A DNA stretch of 64,000 bases from Kappaphycus alvarezii (Eukaryota > Rhodophyta > Florideophyceae > Gigartinales > Solieriaceae). A model generated the notes under the pieces. It had not been told where the DNA came from and did not search any database. It saw only the letters and a list, made by a program, of their open reading frames with translations. The stretch covers positions 248,001-312,000 of the forward strand of contig NADL03000084.1 of NCBI GenBank assembly GCA_002205965.3, read 5' to 3'. The position numbers and the translations under genes were made by a program. Positions 36,375 through 64,000 of this stretch are shown in pieces (the first letter of the stretch is position 1; each line of letters starts with the position of its first letter).

Positions 36375-36824
36375 GCTAATGTACGGAAGGGCTCCAAGGA
36401 TACTCAAGAGAGACACAAAAACAAATAATATCGGTGAGAAGAGTAGAAAAGTCGAATTACTGATCTCAGAAGGCTAGAGATCACACTGCGCGTTAACATA
36501 GACAAAAAACCATAGTGTAGAGGCTCCAGTTCAAACCTGGTAAAATCGGCTCTAGATTACTTGTTTTAGATGGATAGGCCATGCAGCAGGCTGTGAAGTG
36601 TACGGCCTTCCAAACAAAATACCCGAGCCCTTGCATCGTCACGGAGGAAAGAAAAGCTCTTTTCAAGCTCGGGGAAGAGATCAAGGAGGGCCATCCATGC
36701 AAGTCGTCTTGTATCTTACCACCAGAGGCCTAAATAACTCCTCCCACAGGACTATGTGCAACCACGAATCATACTCACCAATAACTATGCAATGATTCCT
36801 ATGTGAGTAAAAGGAGCCTAAAAG

Positions 36825-37790
36825 CGTATAATCTTGACTGCGCGTGACTATTACGAACTCTACGTAATCATATATTTCTACATTAATACATGTCTATGTA
36901 TTCGTACTTTGAACGGCCCACTGATACCCGAAGAAGGTTTCCAACTATTAATAAGAGTTCCATTTTCGTTCCAAAACGAATGTTTCATGGAAGCAGGTCC
37001 AGGTTTTGTGGAAGTAATATATCATTAATCTATAGGAAGGTATGGGAAAGTAGCTACCAGAGACTTATCGAAAACCTATCCGAACATTATTTGCCCGGTT
37101 TTCATATTTCTCAAGAATAATCAAGATGCGCAACTCAGAGGTTACAGCTTATCCCCTGATATGGAATACCAATTAGTCCCATATCCTCTATAAGAATCTT
37201 ACGTTTCCCTGCCAAGGACCGCGGGTTCTGCTGAAGACCAAGATCCTGTCGACACCGTCGTTATGATTCGAGCAGGACCATTCATTGATAGAGGCGGACT
37301 ATGAAAGAGGGTAAAGCGTCGAGAGCGAGACGGAAGATCACCAAGGAGATCAATTCCAACACAGTCCAGTCCCCCAGGGGGGAAGAATGTCTCCTTGATT
37401 ATTGGACGGCTACAAATTAGACTATGGCTTCGTTAAATAACGGAGGACTCTCGAGAAGCAGAGGTAATTTCCTACTTTGCTATTTGCATTTTCATGTGCT
37501 TCCAAAGCATACACGGGCACTCGTGGGGACTTGATTTTTATGTTGCGTATTTTTTTATCCCTCAGATACCTGTTCCGAGATGAGTAACCAGAGAATTTCG
37601 CATACTACATCTAATATCTCACATATTGACGATTTGGAGAAGTAAATCGAGAGTAGTTCTTCAGAGAACACTATGAAACTATCCATAGGATTTGTGAAAC
37701 CCTTAACCAAGGAACAGAGCCGTTCATCGCACGATACACACTCTCCCACCAACTCGTAAATCAGCTACTGTCATATCCTTTCAGTCAACT
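36825..37790 (+). pseudogene. Gypsy A#1 C-terminal tandem domains (remnants)
   Basis: The first repeat (about 36,840-37,205) keeps Y-Y-E-L-Y-V-I-I, C-L-C-I-R-T-L-N-G-P, G-F-V-E-V-I-Y-H and L-V-P-Y-P, with one or two stops. The second repeat (about 37,465-37,790) is more decayed but begins V-I-S-Y-F and keeps F-M-C-F-Q-S-I-H-G. Both correspond to the two domains in copy #2, so the duplication predates the split of the two copies. Confidence 0.65.
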
Positions 37791-37931
37791 ATATACTCTC
37801 CCTGATGGATGGATAGAGCTACTAGAGGGAAACCAAGAGCAATAAAGACGAGCCAGGAAGATCGTTCTGAGTGGGAGGGTGTGGTGCGCACTCAACTTTC
37901 ACGCGAAAAAAATCTAGAAGAGGACAAAATT

Positions 37932-40089: not shown

Positions 40090-42955
40090 CTACGGATGCG
40101 GGCGGCGGGTAGAAACTTGTCGCGCCTGCATTATTTGGAGACTAAATGCAAAACGGGTAACGAAGTCGCGGAGCTCCTGATGAGGGGAGGAACCGCGACG
40201 AGAAGCAGCGAAGGAAGCAAGGCGGCGGAAAAAAGCCTTACCGTCGTCGCCCAAGGCGCCATAGATATCAATCCCGACGGGGGAGAGGAGGATATCGTTT
40301 CGGTTGCAGTAAGTGCCGTAATGACGATGTTTCTCGCGCTCTGCGAGTGTCGCGGCGGCGCCGGCAGTAACCGTACTTGGCGAAATGTGGCGGCGTGCGG
40401 AGGGGTGGGCAACAGTAACGTCGACGGCTATATCGGTACTGTGAAGCCCGTATGCAGCGGGTATGTAGATATCCATTCGTAGCACGGGGGACTCCGAATG
40501 CCCAGATGAGTCGGGAACCTGGTGGAGGAGCGGATGTTCGACGAGGGCGACGATCCCAACTTCCTTGCAGTAGCGGGCAAGAACGTTGCGGAGGATGTGG
40601 TGACGACGAGTCATTCCGTCTTCGTATTTGCAGGTCAACGCGTGTTGACCACTTGGATCTAAGACGGGTGCGATGTCGGCCGAGCGGCGGGAGCAGACCG
40701 GACAGCGAGTAGATCCAGGGAATAGCGCGATGCCGAGACGTAGAGCCAGAGCGACTTTCCAGGCGGAAGAGGACATGTACGTACCGCGGTGGGGTGAGGA
40801 AGCGAAGAGAAAACAGTCGATGCGGAGGATGTGCGCACGGAGAGGAGCCGTGCTCGGTCGTGGGCTGCCGCGGACGAGAACAAGCTATCGGACTTCGATA
40901 GCATGAGTTCAGTTGTGATCGCAGACTGGAGCCTTTCGCCGGGGACCGGCGATGAACAACGCTCGAAAAGAGCCGTAGCTGTAAGCGACGAAGACAGCTG
41001 CGGGTGGCGGGAGGATAAGAGCGAGATGGCAGACCGAGGGATCTCTTCCAAGTGGCGGTCCTGGGAAAGGGTAAGCAGGTCGGAGATAAGTCGAAAAGAA
41101 TCAATTACAGATGCTGCGTATGCAGCCTCGGTAATGTCTGAAGTTTGCAGGAGACCTAGACCGCCCATTGAGAAGGGGAGAGAGGCTTGGAGCCAGGCTC
41201 GCTCTGGACAGGGCAGCTGCAATTGGTGGAACGCTTCCCTCTGCTTCTGATCGAAGCTAGCGGCGAGAACCGCAGATTGAGTGGAGGGAAGCGTACGCAG
41301 CAAGTGCATGACCTTGGAGGCGTTCGCGCAGAAGCGGTGTAAGTGGAAAGCCAATTGAGCATCATCCAAGTCTCGAAGGGATTGGAAGATGCGGTCAACT
41401 TCGTTTTGGCGGCCTGCGAAAAATTGGGAAACAAAAGCGTCCGAGCCAATCGGGGATCCCAGCACGATAAAACCAGGGGGGGTTGAAAAGGGGCAAGGAA
41501 GTGCCAAAGGGGAGTGGGAAGGGGAGAAGCCGTAAACTTGGGTCTTGGCAAGGTTGAGCTGGAACCCTAGTGGACCTCCTTCAAGCTGGATGAAACGGAT
41601 GGCAGCAGCGGCTTGGGATCGAGGAAGAACAATGTTACCGTCATCTGCGTACCAAGCGTTCAGGGCAGGTGAGAACTTCTCCTGTAACGATAGCAAGAGC
41701 GGATGGAGAGCCAGGGCAAAGAGCAAGGGACCGAGGGGATCACCTTGCTGAGTGCCCTCTGAACTACGGACATAGTAGGGTCCGAAAGCAAGCTCTGTAG
41801 GAGCATCGTAACAAGAGTGTACCCACCGTGCGAGGCCTGGGGCATGTGTCTGTACGGCTTCCAGAATGCGCTGGCGGGAGATGCAATTGAAAGCGTTGCG
41901 AGCATCTATCTGGACCAAGACGTGATCGTGGAACTCGGGTCTCTGGGAAAGACGACGCACAGAATGAATTATTGCATCGATGCCGTTCTTGACGCCTACC
42001 CCGACCTGATGGGGCAGAAGGTAAGAGCGGATGGCGGGGGCGGCTTTGTGTGCCGCGAGCCTAGAAATTAGGCGCCGGTAGAGAAGCCCAACCGCAATCG
42101 GACGGATTCCCCCGTTTGGCTTCGGCAGCGCAATAAGACGGCCTCCGCAGAAATACGGGCGGCACGCGGCCGGCAGATCGCTGTTCAAACAGAGGTTGAG
42201 GAACTTTGTCAGGGCATGTAGGCAATCCCTCGCGGGCGTGACCCCACCTGCCGGGCGAAGCAGCATTCGCAGGAACACTGGGGATAGACCATCGGCCCCA
42301 GGAGCGGTTGAAGGATCCAGGCTGTGAATGGCACGGCGGACATCCGAGACCGAGAACTTTAGCGCCGGAGGCAAACCGTGAGGGGGCATGGGAGTGATTG
42401 GGATGGGGGGCGGGGGATGAAGTGAAGCCAAGGATTGAAAGGTAGCTTCGCTGGGGGAGAGTGGGGGATCGACTTGGAGAAGGGCTGCTGTGGCCCGGGA
42501 AGGGCTACCCCGGGAGAGGAAGCGACGGCATCTGCGAAGGGCCGTGTCAGGGCGGGCGAGGGTGGGAGGGGATGGAATCGGAGAGGGGGTGGCGGAGATG
42601 AACAACGAGGAGAGGCCTCATCGAAGAGGTCATCATAGAGGCGGCTAGAGGCCATGCGGATGCGGTCGACAAGGCTGGAGCAATTTTCCCTGCGGCGGCG
42701 GCCAAGAGCGCGGGGGCGGTTGTGTCGGAAAACCAACTTCGGGATGGCAAGAAGTTCCAGAAGGGCTCGAGTCCTGTGCTCTGGCGATGGAGCAGATATA
42801 ACGCGGTACAAGGCAGCAAAGTATAAGTCGTAAGCCGCGGCTTGGACCGGGCGAGGAATGAAGGTGAGAACAGGGAAGGGGGCGGAGAGGAGGGAGCGGA
42901 AGGTGAGGGGTGACTGGGATGGTCCTGAAACTAGATTCACAGCTGGGAGATTCAT
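40090..42955 (-). CDS. LINE#1 ORF2: reverse transcriptase plus restriction-like endonuclease (two frameshifts)
   Basis: ORF2 begins MNLPAVNLVSGPSQ at 42,955, where ATGA couples it to ORF1. It shifts frame near 42,590, then stays open for over 600 codons to about 40,760, where a second shift leads to the C-terminal segment ending at 40,090. Motifs in order: a P-G-A-D-G-L-S block near 42,295, K-P-N-G-G-I-R-P-I-A-V-G near 42,105, Q-I-D-A-R-N-A-F-N near 41,900, E-G-T-Q-Q-G-D-P-L-G-P near 41,745 and the catalytic Y-A-D-D at 41,640-41,651. A C-x2-C-x16-H-x3-C finger follows near 40,690-40,625. An R-x-D-I...V-D-V-T-V pair near 40,480-40,410 resembles the PD-(D/E)xK nuclease of R2/CRE-like elements. 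The product would carry out target-primed reverse transcription. Confidence 0.85.
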
Positions 42956-55718: not shown

Positions 55719-56357
55719 CTAGATATCATCACAACCAATCCCCGCTTTCTCACAACAAACTTGCCTGAATCGCCTTCTAATGCGCCTGCTGCGCCCAACC
55801 CTACGACAAGGGTTAACTGCCACTGGTCCAGAAATCATGAAATTTGAACCACAACTGGCACCCCTCAGTTGACATAATGTACAATACAGCATCCCGTCAC
55901 TTCCTAAGAAACGCGGACAGAACTGCAACGTACATGCGAAATTGCAATCCGGTGGAGTTCCCACGACGCCTCGCCGAGTCGCCCAAGCCTTGCAAATGGT
56001 TGTTTCCCCATCGATTCGGCACACACCACCCGGACCATTCCGGGTACAAAAGGGGACAGAACATCTCGGTACTCGCCCCCTCAACCTTCTGCACTGACCA
56101 CGGGATGGTATGTCCAGCGGCAGAAATCCAAAGTCAGTTATGACACAAGTCAATCCATCGGCACACGGTGTTGGTCGGAATAATAGCGCTGCCGTTGTTG
56201 AACAACTTTCGGACCTCCTCAGACAACCAACGGAAAACTCAATGCAACAAGTTGGGCGATCTAAAGGACTAATATCGCCCCTGCATTTTGCCGGAACTCT
56301 CTGCCCAAGCGTGACGGTCAGCGCCAAGAGGAGTGTGGTGAAGAAAAAAAGACGCAT
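55719..56357 (-). CDS. Secreted cysteine-rich protein with a Kazal-like motif (212 aa)
   Basis: Single-exon ORF starting at the ATG at 56,357. The open frame extends seven codons further but without an ATG. Residues 1-18 (MRLFFFTTLLLALTVTLG) are a signal peptide. The mature chain has 22 cysteines, an even number, suggesting a disulphide-rich extracellular protein. Near residues 145-165 the pattern C-P-x4-G-S-D-G-x2-Y-x3-C-x-L-x2-A-x-C resembles a Kazal-type protease-inhibitor domain, although the upstream cysteine spacing is unusual. An earlier C-A-D-G-L-T-C region resembles small Cys-rich growth-factor-binding-like folds. The C-terminus is basic (R-R-I-R-R-R-F-R) and then C-C-E. A TATA box lies 84-92 bp upstream. 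No stops or frameshifts are present, in contrast to the transposon debris on both sides. Confidence 0.75.
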   Translation of the reverse strand: MRLFFFTTLLLALTVTLGQRVPAKCRGDISPLDRPTCCIEFSVGCLRRSESCSTTAALLFRPTPCADGLTCVITDFGFLPLDIPSRGQCRRLRGRVPRCSVPFCTRNGPGGVCRIDGETTICKAWATRRGVVGTPPDCNFACTLQFCPRFLGSDGMLYCTLCQLRGASCGSNFMISGPVAVNPCRRVGRSRRIRRRFRQVCCEKAGIGCDDI

Positions 56358-56440
56358 ACTTGCAAACGTGGCTGACAAATGTGATCGTGCCTTTTCGGAA
56401 AGACTCAGAAGGTTTGCAGAGGTACAAAGAATTGCCTTGG

Positions 56441-58494: not shown

Positions 58495-59169
58495 TGATAG
58501 GGGTAAATCGGCGGGGGAAGAGATCCTCAGAACCAATTACCCTGAGAAGGAGGTGTTGCGAGCGACAAAAGTGCTGCCGTGGTATTGTTGAACGAACAAA
58601 AGGGAGTGTATATAGAAGAGAGTTGAGGAAGCTACAAGCAAGTATAAAAGGGGCAGAGTCTACCACTGACGCTCTGCGACCAGCGTAAGAAAAAGTGTTC
58701 TTGGGTCTGAAGTTGACTCTCAACTTCCTACTACTCGGGACTTGGCTTGAAGTTGTCTGCCAACTTGCTTCACCTCCACTAAAGGAAGCAGTTTACTCGG
58801 CTTATATAGACTTTTGGCTACCCCAAAAGTCTCCAACAAACATACTAATAACCATAAAATGTATTCACGGTAATCGTGTGAACCAGAGAGACTATTAGAA
58901 GATATTTCCTCAAGGTAAATATCTAGGTGCCATACCCATGCCAGCCACCATCGGCCAGGGGTGGGAATTGATGTGGCCATTATATAGACCTTTCAGAGCT
59001 ACTTGTAGTATCACCCACAACCTGGAACTGTACTGACATCTACTATGACAGCGTGTCCTAAAATGAAAAAATCAACCGACGAATTTGCCACACTCACCCA
59101 AATTAAAAATATCTTGCAAATTCAAAAACTGTAAAAATATCTTCCCAATTCCGATACTGTATACAATCA
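58495..59169 (-). repeat. 3' LTR of gypsy A#2 (about 675 bp)
   Basis: In element sense it starts TGATTGTATACAG just after GATGAGGACCA (likely polypurine tract) and ends CCCCTATCA. TATA-like TCTATATAATGG lies near 58,985 and GTCTATATAAGCC near 58,805. Its length matches the A#1 LTR. Confidence 0.75.
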
Positions 59170-59247
59170 TGGTCCTCATCTAGATTTTTTTCGTGCGCGA
59201 ATTTGCGCACATCACGCCCTCTCGCTCAAGACGAACGTCCCGACTCG

Positions 59248-62200
59248 TCACTGCTCTTCTTCTGCTTCCGTTAGTGTTCGCTGTCTTATTGATAAAATGT
59301 ATGGTCTCTCAAACGGGTACGGATGCAACTGATTACCAATATGATGCTCTAAAAAGTAGGTTCGCATTACTGGTACCTCACTTTGTAGCATAGCCTCATA
59401 TATTGGTTTGATCACATCGAGGTGGGGTTGAATACATTCTTCTTCCGTGACTCTTCCGAATCTTCCAAGAGTGAAAAAATATATGTGATATGCAAACTCT
59501 TCTGGAAGATGCCGGAGGAATGGATGTCGATAAGAAAAGAAGACGCGCATCATCAAGAACGAATCTTCGTAAGATAAGTGCGGTCCATGTAGCGCCCTAA
59601 AACATAAACAGATGCTTATCATGAAATAAGAAATGACCTGCGCATCGTTCGCATCCTCGGAGATATTGCGCAGCCAAAAAGATAATCTTCTTCTTCCGAC
59701 TGTATGCTGTGCATGGTTGTGAAGGAGAGCTAGAGATGAAGTTGTGGTGGACGGTCCCGATGAATGGCCGCGACCAGCTCCTGACGTACTGGGACCTGCA
59801 CGAGGTCCTCTCGGGGGACGACCGGAACCTCTTCTGGGCGGGTTGTTGTCTCCTGAAGGTCCTCCTCTGGTCATCATCACTGCTTCAGGAGGATCCTCGC
59901 CGCCTCCAACGTTCCCAATTTGTGGCGGAGAAACGTAAGGTTCCCATAGAGGATACGGGACCAGCCTGTATTCCATATCCGGGGGTAAGGCGTAACCTCT
60001 CAGTCGCACGTCTTGGTTGTTCTTGAGAAATACGTAAATTGGACGGATAATATTCAGATACGTTTGCGACAAGTCTCCAGCAGCTACCATTCCATATCTT
60101 CCTATAGAGTAATGATATATTACCTCCACAAACTCTGGACCTGCTTCCGTGAACCTTCCGTTTTGGAATGAAAATAGAACTCTTATTAATAGTCGGAAAT
60201 CTTCTTCAGGTAGCAATGGTCCGTTCAACGTACGAAAACATAGGCATATATTAATGTAGAAATGGATGATTACGTGGAGTTCGTAGTAGTCCCGCGTAAC
60301 CGAGATGATCCATTCCCAGGCCCTTTTTCCTCCCATAGGAATCATTCTATAGTTAAAGATGAGTATGCCCCGTGGTTGCGCATAGTCCTGTGTGAGAAGG
60401 AATTCTTCAGGCCTCTGATGGTAAGGGACCAGACGACGTGCATGGATGGCCCTCCTTGATCTCTTCCCTGAGCTTGAACAGAGCTGATAGTGCGGGTGTC
60501 TTTCCTCCGTGACGATGCAAGGGTTCGAGTACTTGGTTTGGAAGGCCGGCCACTTCACAGCCTGCTGCATTGCTTTTCCATGTACTACAAGTACTTTAGA
60601 GCCAACTGAAAAGGTTCTGACTGCAGGTTCTGCATCCTTATTTCTTGTCTGTGTTAGCGCGCGGTGTGATCTCCAGCCTTCGGTGGCCAGTAGTTCAACT
60701 TCCCTACTCTCTTCATCGATAATATTTGTTTCCATGTCTCTCTGTAACATTCTAGGAGCCCTTCCGTACATTAGCTCGAATGGTGAGCGTCCATTTCTTC
60801 CTCTTCTTCGACGGTAGCCGTATAACACTTTTGGTAAGGCATCTTCCCACTGGATTTCATTCTCCAACATAGTTTTCGATATTGCTCGTTTGATGGTTCC
60901 AACCATCCTCTCCGCTTTCCCGTTGGACATAGGAGCGTATGCGAGAACGGTCTTCAGCTGAATCCCTTTCTCTTCCAAAAAACGAAGCAGTGAAGTTGCA
61001 GTAAAACAAAGGGCGTTATCCGAGATGATCCTTTTTGGAAGACCAAACGGTTCAATTATTTCTTTTTCGATGAATCTCAGTACCACCTCAGCATTTGCCT
61101 CCTCGACTGCAACTGCTATTGGCCATCCAGTAAGATGTTCCACCCCTATAAGGAGATATTTGTTTCCGGAAGAAGTTTCCTTGAACGGGCCCGCGAAGTC
61201 AATTGAGAAGGTTTCAAAGAGACCGGAAACTGGAAAACTTAGAGTTGTCTTATACTTCCGTATTGGAGTGAATTTTTGGCAGTTGTCGCAGCTTTTCACG
61301 AAATTATAGACGTCCTTATGGATACCGGGCCACCAGAATCTCTCAGTTACGAATTTTTTGGTTGTTTCGAGATCCCAATGCCCTAGCTCATCATGGAAAG
61401 TCCTCAAGATCTTCATTCTTTCTTTCAAAGGGGCCACTAGTCGGGGACCGGCTTTAGTGTGCCGGAAAGTTTCCCATTCCACAATGTAAAAGCCTTTTGA
61501 TTCCTGCGTACCCAATTTCTGTTCAAGATCAACCTTTCTCATTTCTAGTCCATCGAGGAATTTGATCAGTCCGTGAATATTAGCTTCGTACTCGTTATCG
61601 TTCGGCAACTGCAACTCGGCGACTCCGACGATGTCCTCCGAAGCTTTTTCATTTGGAATCAGTGCGTCCCTCAAGCGGGATAGGTAATCGGCAGGCTGAT
61701 TATTGCGTCCGGGTCTATACACAATTTCAAACCGATATTCTGCGAAAATGTCGAGCCATCGGGCCAAGCGGTGATGTACATCCTTCTTTTGGAATGCTGT
61801 TTTAAGTGCCTGGTGATCAGTTATCAAGACAAATTTCTCGAGTGATAAAAGGTATACGCGAAACTTTTTCAGCGCGAAGACGACAGCTAGCGCTTCTTTC
61901 TCGCAGACTGAGTATCTCTTTTCCGCGTCATTCAGAGTTCGGCTTGCGAATTGAACAGGGTGTAGTCTTCCGTTTTCATCTTTTTGGGACAAAACGGCAC
62001 CCAAAGACCGTTCTGAGGCATCTGTCTCCACAACGAATGGTCTCTTGAAATCTGGGTACATGAGAACTGGGGGGACACATAGCTTATCTTTAAGCTCCTG
62101 AAATGCAGTTTCCATTTCCTTGTTCCAGTAAAATTTTCCGTTCTTCGTAGTGCTGGCATGTAACGGTGCTGCAGTCTTGGCGAAATCTTTGATAAATCTT

Positions 62201-63333
62201 CTGTAATATGAGGCCAGTCCTAAGAAGCTTCGGACCTCCGTCTTTGAAGCGGGCCTTGGTGCCAACTTTATTTTTTTCGTTTTCTCTGGATCCACTCTAA
62301 TTCCCTCTTGGTCGACGATATGACCGAGTAATTGGATAGAAGTTTTCGCAAAGAAGCATTTGCTCAACTTAATTTTCAAGCTATACTCCGATATCCTCTC
62401 CACAACTGTCTTGACGTGCGAGATGTGCTGATCCAATGTTTCTGAGAATATGACGACATCATCGATATAGACTCTTGCGAATGGAAGTCCTTTCAAAACC
62501 TCGTTCATCATTCTTTGGAATGTAGCTGGTGCATTCATGAGACCAAAAGGCATCACTTCGAACCTGAACGTACCGGCTTTGCTGGTAAAGGTTGTTTTTT
62601 CCTTACATTTTTCATCCAATGGAATCTGCCAATAGCCAGTGTAAAGGTCAATTGAGGTGAAATATCTCCCGTCCTTCAGGTCCTCGAGGATCTCCTCCAT
62701 GTTCGGAATCGGAAATCGATCGGGTATCATTCTCTGGTTCAGTTGTCGGTAATCGACGCAAAAACGCAGCTTTCCATCCTTCTTTGGTGCGACCACAACT
62801 GGAAACGACCATGGGGATGAAACTGGTCGAATAATATCATTTTTCAGCATACTTGTAACATTTTCTGAGATAAATTGGTCATATTTTGGCGGTTGACGTC
62901 TAGGCTTGTGGTAAATCGGTTGAGTGTCGGTAAGTTCGAACGAGTGAGTAACCGGTACACTTGCTTGTCTTAAATCTGAAACGCTCCATGCAATTACTTC
63001 GGAAGATGTTAACATGTCGGATATTTTCAGTGAGGCGGGGGCGGGAAGGTGCTGCACTTTTCCTTGGATTTCTGCCATTTGGCGCCCTTTTTCTTCTTGA
63101 TCCTCAACCTCAATATTTTGAAGGACCTCTTCCGTCGTGCTCACATCTTCATATATGGAATTCGACGTATTCTTATTTTCTTTGCAAAGGTAATCTTCTT
63201 TCATGCTCCGAATTCTGTCCTTTGATTCGATATCATCGCAAAAAGAAACACATTCGGGTTTCAAACTTATCCTAGAATCCCAGTCGTCATCTGTTTCAAA
63301 CCCGGAATCATAATCGTCCCATGCCATGTTCAT
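59248..63333 (-). CDS. pol: Gypsy A#2 Pol: RT, RNase H, integrase and two C-terminal unknown domains (1,361 codons)
   Basis: One uninterrupted frame. An acidic linker (residues 1-100) precedes RT (about 165-345), with F-C-V-D-Y-R-Q-L-N, M-P-F-G-L-M-N-A-P and catalytic Y-I-D-D near residue 288. RNase H (about 425-550) has E-T-D-A-S and I-T-D-H-Q-A-L. Integrase follows with its H-H-C-C finger (H-D-E-L-G-H-W near 646, C-D-N-C-Q-K near 680), catalytic Asp near 711 (S-I-D-F-A-G-P-F), Asp near 771 (I-S-D-N-A) and Glu near 808 (G-K-A-E-R-M). After the integrase come two copies of an unrecognised ~120-residue domain (about 1015-1134 and 1229-1350), joined by a Gly/Pro/Ser/Arg-rich linker. The frame begins at ATG 63,333, one base after a frameshift from the protease, so this ATG is probably not the original start. 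Confidence 0.9.
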   Translation of the reverse strand: MNMAWDDYDSGFETDDDWDSRISLKPECVSFCDDIESKDRIRSMKEDYLCKENKNTSNSIYEDVSTTEEVLQNIEVEDQEEKGRQMAEIQGKVQHLPAPASLKISDMLTSSEVIAWSVSDLRQASVPVTHSFELTDTQPIYHKPRRQPPKYDQFISENVTSMLKNDIIRPVSSPWSFPVVVAPKKDGKLRFCVDYRQLNQRMIPDRFPIPNMEEILEDLKDGRYFTSIDLYTGYWQIPLDEKCKEKTTFTSKAGTFRFEVMPFGLMNAPATFQRMMNEVLKGLPFARVYIDDVVIFSETLDQHISHVKTVVERISEYSLKIKLSKCFFAKTSIQLLGHIVDQEGIRVDPEKTKKIKLAPRPASKTEVRSFLGLASYYRRFIKDFAKTAAPLHASTTKNGKFYWNKEMETAFQELKDKLCVPPVLMYPDFKRPFVVETDASERSLGAVLSQKDENGRLHPVQFASRTLNDAEKRYSVCEKEALAVVFALKKFRVYLLSLEKFVLITDHQALKTAFQKKDVHHRLARWLDIFAEYRFEIVYRPGRNNQPADYLSRLRDALIPNEKASEDIVGVAELQLPNDNEYEANIHGLIKFLDGLEMRKVDLEQKLGTQESKGFYIVEWETFRHTKAGPRLVAPLKERMKILRTFHDELGHWDLETTKKFVTERFWWPGIHKDVYNFVKSCDNCQKFTPIRKYKTTLSFPVSGLFETFSIDFAGPFKETSSGNKYLLIGVEHLTGWPIAVAVEEANAEVVLRFIEKEIIEPFGLPKRIISDNALCFTATSLLRFLEEKGIQLKTVLAYAPMSNGKAERMVGTIKRAISKTMLENEIQWEDALPKVLYGYRRRRGRNGRSPFELMYGRAPRMLQRDMETNIIDEESREVELLATEGWRSHRALTQTRNKDAEPAVRTFSVGSKVLVVHGKAMQQAVKWPAFQTKYSNPCIVTEERHPHYQLCSSSGKRSRRAIHARRLVPYHQRPEEFLLTQDYAQPRGILIFNYRMIPMGGKRAWEWIISVTRDYYELHVIIHFYINICLCFRTLNGPLLPEEDFRLLIRVLFSFQNGRFTEAGPEFVEVIYHYSIGRYGMVAAGDLSQTYLNIIRPIYVFLKNNQDVRLRGYALPPDMEYRLVPYPLWEPYVSPPQIGNVGGGEDPPEAVMMTRGGPSGDNNPPRRGSGRPPRGPRAGPSTSGAGRGHSSGPSTTTSSLALLHNHAQHTVGRRRLSFWLRNISEDANDAQVISYFMISICLCFRALHGPHLSYEDSFLMMRVFFSYRHPFLRHLPEEFAYHIYFFTLGRFGRVTEEECIQPHLDVIKPIYEAMLQSEVPVMRTYFLEHHIGNQLHPYPFERPYILSIRQRTLTEAEEEQ

Positions 63334-64000
63334 TACCCCCGAGGGTACCCTTTTCCACTTCCGAAAGTGTTAGTTGGTTCCGAATCTTCGCTGTCATAGC
63401 TAGAAGTGAAATCTTCACTGTCCGTTTCTTTTAAATCTTCAGGATGCGTGCTTTTGTCGAAATCCAGGGGCATCTTCACGGTTCTGCCGTCAATATTAAC
63501 TGAAACCATTTGGTTGCCCAAGTCAATGCATGTCCTAGTCTTTCCATTGTGGGGCAGCCAATGATTGCATCGAAAGGGAGATCCGGCATGACAAGAAAGT
63601 CTACATCAACTTTAGAGTCCCCAAAGAACACGGAAACCTTGTCAACAGTGCCCATGCATTTTGAGACGGTTCCATCCGCTACAGTTATTTTTCGAGTCGT
63701 TGGAGTAATTTCGAGACCTAGATCTGTCACCAAAGTTTCTGAAATGAGGTTTGGAACAGCACCCGAATCGAAGAGAGCTTGGGTTTTCATACCCAATACT
63801 TTGACTGGTACCAGCTTAAGACGTCTTGGTGCTGTCGAGGCCGATTGAAGAAACAGTTTCTTACCCTTAGCGGACTTATTAGACCTGATAATTTTTTTGA
63901 GTTCTTTTCTCGCATCCTCTGCGTCGCCCCTCAAAAGTTGACCAAACGTTATCCCAGTTGGGGCCGATGCAAGCTCAGCCACCAAATTGTACCTCTTCAC
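63333..64000 (-). pseudogene. Gypsy A#2 aspartic protease region (two 1-bp deletions), partial at window edge
   Basis: 64,000-63,476 is open. It carries a basic segment (N-K-S-A-K-G-K-K), the protease active site A-L-F-D-S-G-A-V-P-N-L-I-S near 63,770 and the flap-side I-I-G-C-P-T-M-E-R-L. Compared with copy #1, one base is missing near 63,530, so the frame derails, and another near 63,336, giving a TAATG overlap with the pol ORF. Hence protease and RT were one polyprotein originally and this copy probably cannot make it. Confidence 0.75.

What the first reader, a model, noticed from the sequence alone, without database searches (positions are those of the whole stretch)
59248..60300. Tandem-duplicated unknown domain at the C-terminus of the gypsy polyprotein
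Downstream of integrase, residues about 1015-1134 and 1229-1350 align with each other. Shared features are ICLCFR-x-L-x-GP, R-V-x-F-S, P-E-F-x3-IY, G-R-x-G-x-V, I-x-PIY and L-x-PYP-x3-PY. A Gly/Pro-rich linker joins them. Copy A#1 keeps both repeats, so the arrangement is heritable in the family. I know no gypsy family with this extension. It is not an obvious chromodomain or envelope, and no signal peptide or long hydrophobic anchor is seen. It could be a targeting, capsid-related or host-derived module.
Basis: partly seen in the sequence, partly recalled or inferred. Interest (0 to 1): 0.75.

Follow-up and report, generated by a model that had tools for sequence, protein, structure and literature searches.

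The report
Duplicated unknown domain on retrotransposon integrase
An abundant Ty3/gypsy-type jumping gene carries, fused to the end of its integrase, two related copies of a protein domain with no recognised relative in the databases searched; selection keeps the domain, and its second copy appears to have been swapped between element lineages, so it may be a new module that guides or assists integration.

Summary
Residues 1008-1134 (A) and 1220-1346 (B) of the pol ORF (window 59248-63333, minus) align without gaps at 36% identity (E 1e-28; score 230 against a maximum of 55 in 1000 shuffles). They follow a Ty3-like integrase CTD ending near residue 978. Pfam, PDB, IMG/VR, GTDB genomes and 5.8 billion proteins gave no significant relative except two decayed fragments. 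The fold is unresolved (pLDDT 56 and 36).

The protein is selected: against 28 closely related copies of a sister subfamily, A has dN/dS 0.10-0.14, near the enzymes. A and B split before the subfamilies. In the sister subfamily pol and A stay 92-95% identical in DNA, but linker and B are replaced by a divergent version: protein 54% identical, synonymous sites saturated. The 3' module thus seems exchanged by recombination while its protein is conserved.

Best mechanism (inferred, about 0.4): an integrase-tethered host-binding module that works like Ty3's or chromoviruses' chromodomain, but is not one by sequence. No direct evidence of targeting was found. New variant of a known kind.

The parts
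59932..60312 (-). Repeat A, residues 1008-1134 of the pol ORF
   Evidence: 36% identical to repeat B, E 1e-28; dN/dS 0.10-0.14 against 28 sister-subfamily copies
59677..59931 (-). Gly/Pro/Ser/Arg-rich linker, residues 1135-1219; fast-evolving
   Evidence: composition; about 43% aa identity to the sister subfamily where aligned, different length
59296..59676 (-). Repeat B, residues 1220-1346; a weak model is all helical
   Evidence: model mean pLDDT 56; 54% aa identity and saturated synonymous sites against two sister copies
59248..59295 (-). C-terminal end (residues 1347-1361) and stop codon
   Evidence: translation
60400..60630 (-). Integrase C-terminal domain (limits approximate, read by eye), directly before the tail
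   Evidence: pol 125-978 aligns to Ty3 Gag-Pol 581-1451, PDB 7q5b
60940..61431 (-). Integrase zinc-binding H2C2 and core (rve) domains
   Evidence: PF17921 2e-18, PF00665 6.9e-9
61735..62787 (-). Reverse transcriptase and RNase H
   Evidence: PF00078 8.1e-35, PF17917 2e-38
63476..64000 (-). 3' part of the gag-pro ORF with aspartyl protease; continues outside the window
   Evidence: PF13650 7e-12; L031 1-1710
58495..59214 (-). 3' LTR, short-U3 type, preceded by a purine-rich tract at about 59215-59227
   Evidence: in 19 of 30 copies similarity to the window stops at 59213, the LTR start, and in one (L017) 12 bases earlier
36810..37842 (+). Decayed older copy with both repeats; its second repeat is of the sister (beta) type
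   Evidence: tblastn; pieces; one B piece has 33 of 45 aa identical to B-beta against 16 of 42 to B-alpha

Best explanation
The feature is the C-terminal tail of the integrase of a multi-copy Ty3/gypsy LTR retrotransposon, probably in a red alga (host inferred). The tail is two tandem, anciently duplicated copies of a domain of about 127 aa of unknown, perhaps helical fold, joined by a flexible basic linker. Shown: the fusion to integrase, the duplication, purifying selection, and a divergent homologue in place of linker plus second repeat in a sister subfamily. Inferred: that this arose by recombination; and that, after integrase binds the cDNA ends, the two repeats project from its CTD, where Ty3 and chromoviruses place a chromodomain, and bind a host chromatin or nuclear factor that carries the complex into the nucleus and onto target DNA. 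Repeat A would be the constant arm; B and its linker a variable arm renewed by recombination. The mechanism is a bet of somewhat less than even odds; the anatomy is firm.
For: Position: in the window copy RT-RH-IN-tail is one ORF; in 111 of 113 scored copies the tail's open frame reaches at least 73 aa upstream, into the integrase CTD region (sample chosen by tail match). The Ty3 match runs to residue 978 and stops before the tail. Ty3 integrase carries just after its CTD a chromodomain that contacts Brf1/TFIIIB and target DNA (PMC8632968, passages). Selection: A dN/dS 0.10-0.14, pol residues 501-900 0.06-0.094, IN CTD 0.12-0.24 over 28 sister copies (the copies are close relatives, so this is nearly one comparison). 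B-alpha against B-beta: pN 0.31 with pS 0.93 (two beta copies), codon identity at shared residues 21 of 75 against 26.9 expected by chance. The linker is Arg-rich in both subfamilies, which would suit a nuclear or nucleic-acid role. No envelope-like anchor, no Gag similarity.
Against: No targeting signal was seen. 34 LTR-end flanks show only a weak site preference (T at +7 in 25 of 34, p 9e-9), and the 30 flanks whose ARAGORN output was shown (up to 800 bases each) hold no tRNA gene. Alpha and beta, with very different B repeats, do not differ in T at +7 (7 of 10, 11 of 17, p 1.0) or in flank GC (9 and 16 flanks, p 0.50). The fold is unresolved. The full RT-to-tail frame is rare among assembled copies: 5 of 113 have an open frame of 1199 aa or more. 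The tail could be cut from integrase by the protease and act alone.
Confidence: 0.4

Rival explanations
1. A separate accessory protein: the tail is released by the protease and acts away from integrase, for instance as an anti-silencing, RNA-export or particle-assembly factor.
For: A long Gly/Pro-rich linker and a duplicated compact domain. Accessory domains occur in gypsy elements, e.g. the orchid AlkB-like RNA demethylase (PMC9289625, abstract and outline seen). Exchange of B between lineages resembles proteins in an arms race.
Against: In 111 of 113 scored copies the tail is in frame with at least 73 aa of upstream pol. Cleavage sites and internal starts were not searched for. Expression as part of pol would be low for a structural protein (general knowledge).
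Confidence: 0.3
2. A captured host or viral gene that was duplicated and keeps its old activity (nucleocapsid- or matrix-like, or a host interaction domain).
For: A domain-sized repeat, helical in a weak model, with no match to any retroelement family in Pfam.
Against: No relative in two IMG/VR scans, the phage collection, PHROGs or PDB, and only two decayed fragments in three searches of 5.8 billion proteins; no fold match at E <= 0.001. These searches reach close relatives only, so divergence could hide one.
Confidence: 0.2
3. A divergent tandem duplication of the vestigial chromodomain that Ty3 carries after its CTD.
For: Same place in the integrase.
Against: Repeat of 127 aa, about twice the Ty3 chromodomain (residues 446-511 in PMC8632968); no chromodomain Pfam hit at E <= 10; the weak model of B is helical.
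Confidence: 0.07
4. Non-functional passenger sequence kept only because the copies are recent.
For: Alpha copies are almost identical (110 of 113 print 100% aa identity, 3 print 99%), so within-subfamily data carry little selection signal. In 6 LTR-picked copies only 2 have an uninterrupted tail.
Against: dN/dS 0.10-0.14 between subfamilies (28 related copies), and protein conservation of B at synonymous saturation.
Confidence: 0.03

Closest known systems
Ty3 (Saccharomyces) integrase with CTD plus vestigial chromodomain (PDB 7q5b; PMC8632968)
   Same: Homologous RT-RH-IN through the CTD (residues 125-978 to Ty3 581-1451); an extra C-terminal module in the same place
   Different: The tail has no sequence match to Ty3; it is duplicated and about 380 aa long; no tRNA gene in the 30 flanks whose ARAGORN output was shown
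Chromoviruses (gypsy elements with a C-terminal chromodomain; class recalled, abstracts seen)
   Same: A module fused after integrase, thought to steer integration
   Different: No chromodomain Pfam match in the tail; different length and motifs
Gypsy/errantivirus elements with an env ORF (recalled)
   Same: Extra coding capacity downstream of integrase
   Different: Here it is in frame with pol, with no transmembrane-grade segment
Gypsy elements with acquired domains, e.g. orchid AlkB-like demethylase (PMC9289625, abstract)
   Same: A lineage-specific extra domain in a gypsy element
   Different: There an identified enzyme in an additional ORF; here an unknown, duplicated domain fused to integrase

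Membership tests
Ty3/gypsy LTR retrotransposon | Gene order protease - RT - RNase H - integrase | tested here: met
Ty3/gypsy LTR retrotransposon | LTRs starting TG and ending CA, with a polypurine tract | tested here: met
   but the two LTRs of this copy are of different subtypes and the flanks show no shared target-site duplication
Ty3/gypsy LTR retrotransposon | Primer-binding site next to the 5' LTR | tested here: inconclusive
   Sequence after the 5' LTR read, not matched to a tRNA
Chromovirus | Chromodomain after the integrase CTD | tested here: not met
   No Pfam family in the tail at E <= 10; of 8 members of A4, one gave one weak unrelated hit (E 0.18). A sequence test only; fold not resolved
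Ty3-type vestigial chromodomain | Small beta-barrel after the CTD | tested here: inconclusive
   No sequence match past residue 978; models too weak
Errantivirus-like Env | Hydrophobic anchor | tested here: not met
   Best 19-residue hydropathy in residues 961-1361 is 1.44
Errantivirus-like Env | Signal peptide | not tested
   No signal-peptide program was run; the tail lies inside an ORF in frame with pol
Gag/capsid module | Similarity to retrotransposon Gag | tested here: inconclusive
   No match to the element's own Gag (hhalign probability 0.2%); no Pfam gag family in the tail; fold unresolved
Integrase targeting domain (functional class) | Changes or directs integration sites | not testable with these tools
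   Flank statistics show a weak site preference that does not differ between alpha and beta

The most novel reading that the evidence does not exclude
The tail is a new class of integrase-borne recognition cassette with one constant and one exchangeable repeat. Recombination among element lineages replaces the second repeat, its linker and parts of the LTR, letting an element change its host partner (or escape a host factor) while keeping the same enzymes.
Probability: 0.15. Interest if true: 0.75.

Novelty: new variant of a known kind. Interest (0 to 1): 0.5.

Why it matters
Few integrase-appended modules are understood, and those that are help decide where retroelements land. A conserved, duplicated domain with no recognised relative, in a family with at least 113 near-identical tails (and thousands of unscored candidates) in one genome, is a tractable new case. 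The natural alpha/beta difference in the second repeat, on an almost constant backbone, is a ready-made comparison of what that repeat does. It also points to modular exchange acting on the 3' end of an LTR element (repeat B and U3) rather than on its enzymes.

Tried and rejected
Tail more intact than pol within copies: in 27 beta copies (chosen by similarity of the tail region; L040 as reference) pol showed 151 gap openings in 40.3 kb against 6 in 28.4 kb of tail. I took this as a possible sign of tail-only selection and tested it on copies chosen by their LTR (40 places listed; 6 fetched). There, against the window copy, the tail had 7 gap openings in 6 x 1086 bases, 3 of 6 copies without any, and 2 of 6 with an uninterrupted frame (the third gap-free copy has a stop); pol had 42. 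The earlier contrast is at least partly sample bias; no claim is made. Many single-base length differences recur at the same places in different copies and may be assembly errors.

Avoidance of shared codons between B-alpha and B-beta (suggested by pS 0.93): rejected, since 21 of 75 shared residues use the same codon against 26.9 expected, which fits plain saturation.

First idea of LTR bounds (58495-58840) was replaced by 58495-59214 after comparing copies.

Literature: 9 searches of open papers; in the rows listed I saw no description of such a tail. Listings only, except PMC9289625 (abstract and outline) and PMC8632968 (passages). No Kappaphycus genome paper was among the 10 rows listed, and one search found no paper. 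Host identity rests on a nuclear COX1 fragment that reads TGA as Trp and whose best PDB match is COX1 of 7jro. That 7jro is a plant structure, that red algal mitochondria read TGA as Trp, and that the assembly size fits Kappaphycus alvarezii are recalled, not tested. A phycobilisome search did not complete.

Full report
What was checked. The pol ORF at 59248-63333 (minus strand, 1361 aa) contains RT, RNase H, integrase zinc-binding and integrase core domains. A gag-pro ORF with an aspartyl protease lies upstream and runs out of the window. The two C-terminal repeats are real: 46 of 127 identical residues, no gaps, blastp E 1e-28; Smith-Waterman 230 against a maximum of 55 in 1000 shuffles. A is residues 1008-1134 (60312-59932), B residues 1220-1346 (59676-59296), and the linker between them is rich in Gly, Pro, Ser and Arg with net charge +6.

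Where it sits. The pol matches Ty3 Gag-Pol (PDB 7q5b) from residue 125 to 978, that is through the integrase CTD, and the match stops before the tail. In Ty3 the next thing after the CTD is a chromodomain that contacts Brf1/TFIIIB and target DNA (PMC8632968, passages). So the repeats occupy the place where known integrases carry a targeting module. In the host genome the 361-aa tail is open in 113 of 113 scored places, the window copy included; in 111 of them the open frame reaches at least 73 aa upstream of the tail, in 2 only 4 aa, and in 5 it is at least 1199 aa long. These are the best-scoring 113 of 5646 first-look candidates. The short frames come from length differences in pol: each of the 30 fetched copies L001-L030 differs from the window there, by real decay or by assembly error.

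What it resembles. No significant relative was found. No Pfam family at E <= 10, no PHROG at E <= 1, no PDB sequence below E 0.6, no phage record at E <= 10, no confirmed IMG/VR or GTDB locus. Three searches of 5.8 billion proteins gave one hit, none, and one hit: two short proteins from a source named only lgn that look like decayed relatives of the same tail. These searches need shared short words, so distant relatives can be missed. The element's own Gag is not similar. AlphaFold2 with a 4-row alignment gave an all-helical B at mean pLDDT 56; the whole tail with 6 rows failed (pLDDT 36). Foldseek found no match at E <= 0.001. The fold is open.

Selection. A search with the decayed window copy (40 places scored of 2130 candidates, 30 fetched) led to 28 copies, L034-L061, of a sister subfamily, beta. 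Against the window copy (alpha), repeat A has dN/dS 0.10-0.14, pol residues 501-900 have 0.06-0.094 and the IN CTD 0.12-0.24. The 28 are close relatives, so this is nearly one comparison, resting on 14-19 synonymous and 6-9 nonsynonymous differences in A per copy. In 24 of the 28 the tail aligns in one stretch (one of them, L051, with two compensating length changes), and in 4 (L037, L041, L044, L048) it is split between frames. The two decayed older copies, L032 and L033, show higher ratios in A (0.29 and 0.35), as expected of dead copies.

Module exchange. Beta copies are 93-95% identical in DNA to the window copy in pol (1.5 kb) and 92.5-94.5% in the first 415 bases of the tail; beyond that, in 28 of 28 copies, there is no DNA match at E <= 1e-5. 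Yet both subfamilies encode a linker and a B repeat. B-alpha and B-beta (two beta copies compared) are 54% identical in protein, pN 0.31, pS 0.93, with codon identity at shared residues at the chance level (21 of 75, expected 26.9), while A keeps 113 of 125. Neighbouring parts of one ORF thus have very different ages, which I read as recombination. One detail does not fit a single clean breakpoint: identity already falls along A, from 0.98-1.00 to 0.87 in 30-codon windows, before the break. A tree of nine domain sequences separates the 4 A rows from the 5 B rows with 100/100 support, so the duplication is older than the subfamilies. The decayed copies carry B of beta type; of the two database fragments, P0001 has a linker and P0002 a B repeat closer to alpha. 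Alpha therefore looks like a chimera of a beta-like 5' part and an older alpha-like 3' part. The LTRs are mosaic too: in L001-L020 similarity to the window stops at the LTR start (in L017 12 bases before) and resumes in the 3' half of the LTR where that was fetched (in all but L004), in nine of L021-L030 it runs through the LTR, and in L025 it runs part of the way. The window copy has a long-U3 5' LTR and a short-U3 3' LTR without a shared target-site duplication.

Integration sites. Of 44 LTR ends with sequence beyond them, 6 had under 60 bases and 4 more were dropped (3 internal LTR ends, 1 duplicate), leaving 34 flanks; two of these (from L023) share bases. They show a weak site preference: C at +6 in 18, T at +7 in 25 (p 9e-9, 14 positions looked at), G at +9 in 19. 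The 30 flanks whose ARAGORN output was shown hold no tRNA gene within the up to 800 bases examined. Four flanks of 34 (L026, L030, L036, L049) begin inside a non-LTR element like the one at window 40.0-41.4 kb. Alpha and beta do not differ in T at +7 (7 of 10, 11 of 17) or in flank GC. This gives no support for B-specific targeting at this sample size.

Mechanism. Shown: fusion, duplication, selection, and two divergent versions of the 3' module on one backbone. Inferred: exchange by recombination, and a protein-protein interaction module that helps integrase reach its target, as in Ty3 and chromoviruses. I put the latter at about 0.4. A released accessory factor (0.3) and a captured gene retaining another role (0.2) remain open. 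It works, at best, like a chromodomain; by sequence it is not one.

Limits. Within-subfamily conservation cannot be used: copies were picked by tail similarity, and in 6 LTR-picked copies (of 40 listed) the tail frame is uninterrupted in only 2. Copy number is known only as first-look candidates (5646, 2130, 2240 and 3913), not as confirmed matches; pattern counts did not complete. The host is inferred to be a red alga from a COX1 fragment read with TGA as Trp (with recalled facts as told under Tried and rejected), and the assembly contains bacterial-looking contigs. Whether a host gene carries a single copy of the domain could not be tested.

Noticed in passing
L031:2241-2840 (minus), just outside the window: The long-U3 5' LTR of this family (about L031 1800-3329) contains an ORF of 199 aa with a long acidic stretch; no Pfam match at E <= 0.01. 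An LTR-encoded protein would be unusual.
   Followed up: partly
window 58495-59214 and L031:1800-3329: The two LTRs of the window copy belong to different subtypes and the flanking bases do not match, so this copy is probably an ectopic recombinant.
   Followed up: partly
window 63372-63476: The gag-pro stop and the start of the open pol frame are separated by about 106 bases in this copy, so pol is not reached by a simple frameshift here.
   Followed up: no
3' flanks of 34 LTR ends: Weak insertion-site preference, strongest at +7 (T in 25 of 34), not different between the two subfamilies.
   Followed up: partly
window 40090-42605: A GC-rich ORF region that looks like a non-LTR element (by eye); 4 of 34 flanks (L026, L030, L036, L049) start inside a relative of its part at 40.0-41.4 kb. 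Its abundance was not measured.
   Followed up: partly
window 55719-56378 (minus): A 219-aa ORF with a hydrophobic N-terminal stretch and many cysteines, no Pfam match at E <= 0.1.
   Followed up: no
G000 contigs C546, C562: The assembly contains bacterial-looking contigs (COX1 family ORFs with bacterial-type neighbours by eye, GC 0.55-0.56).
   Followed up: no
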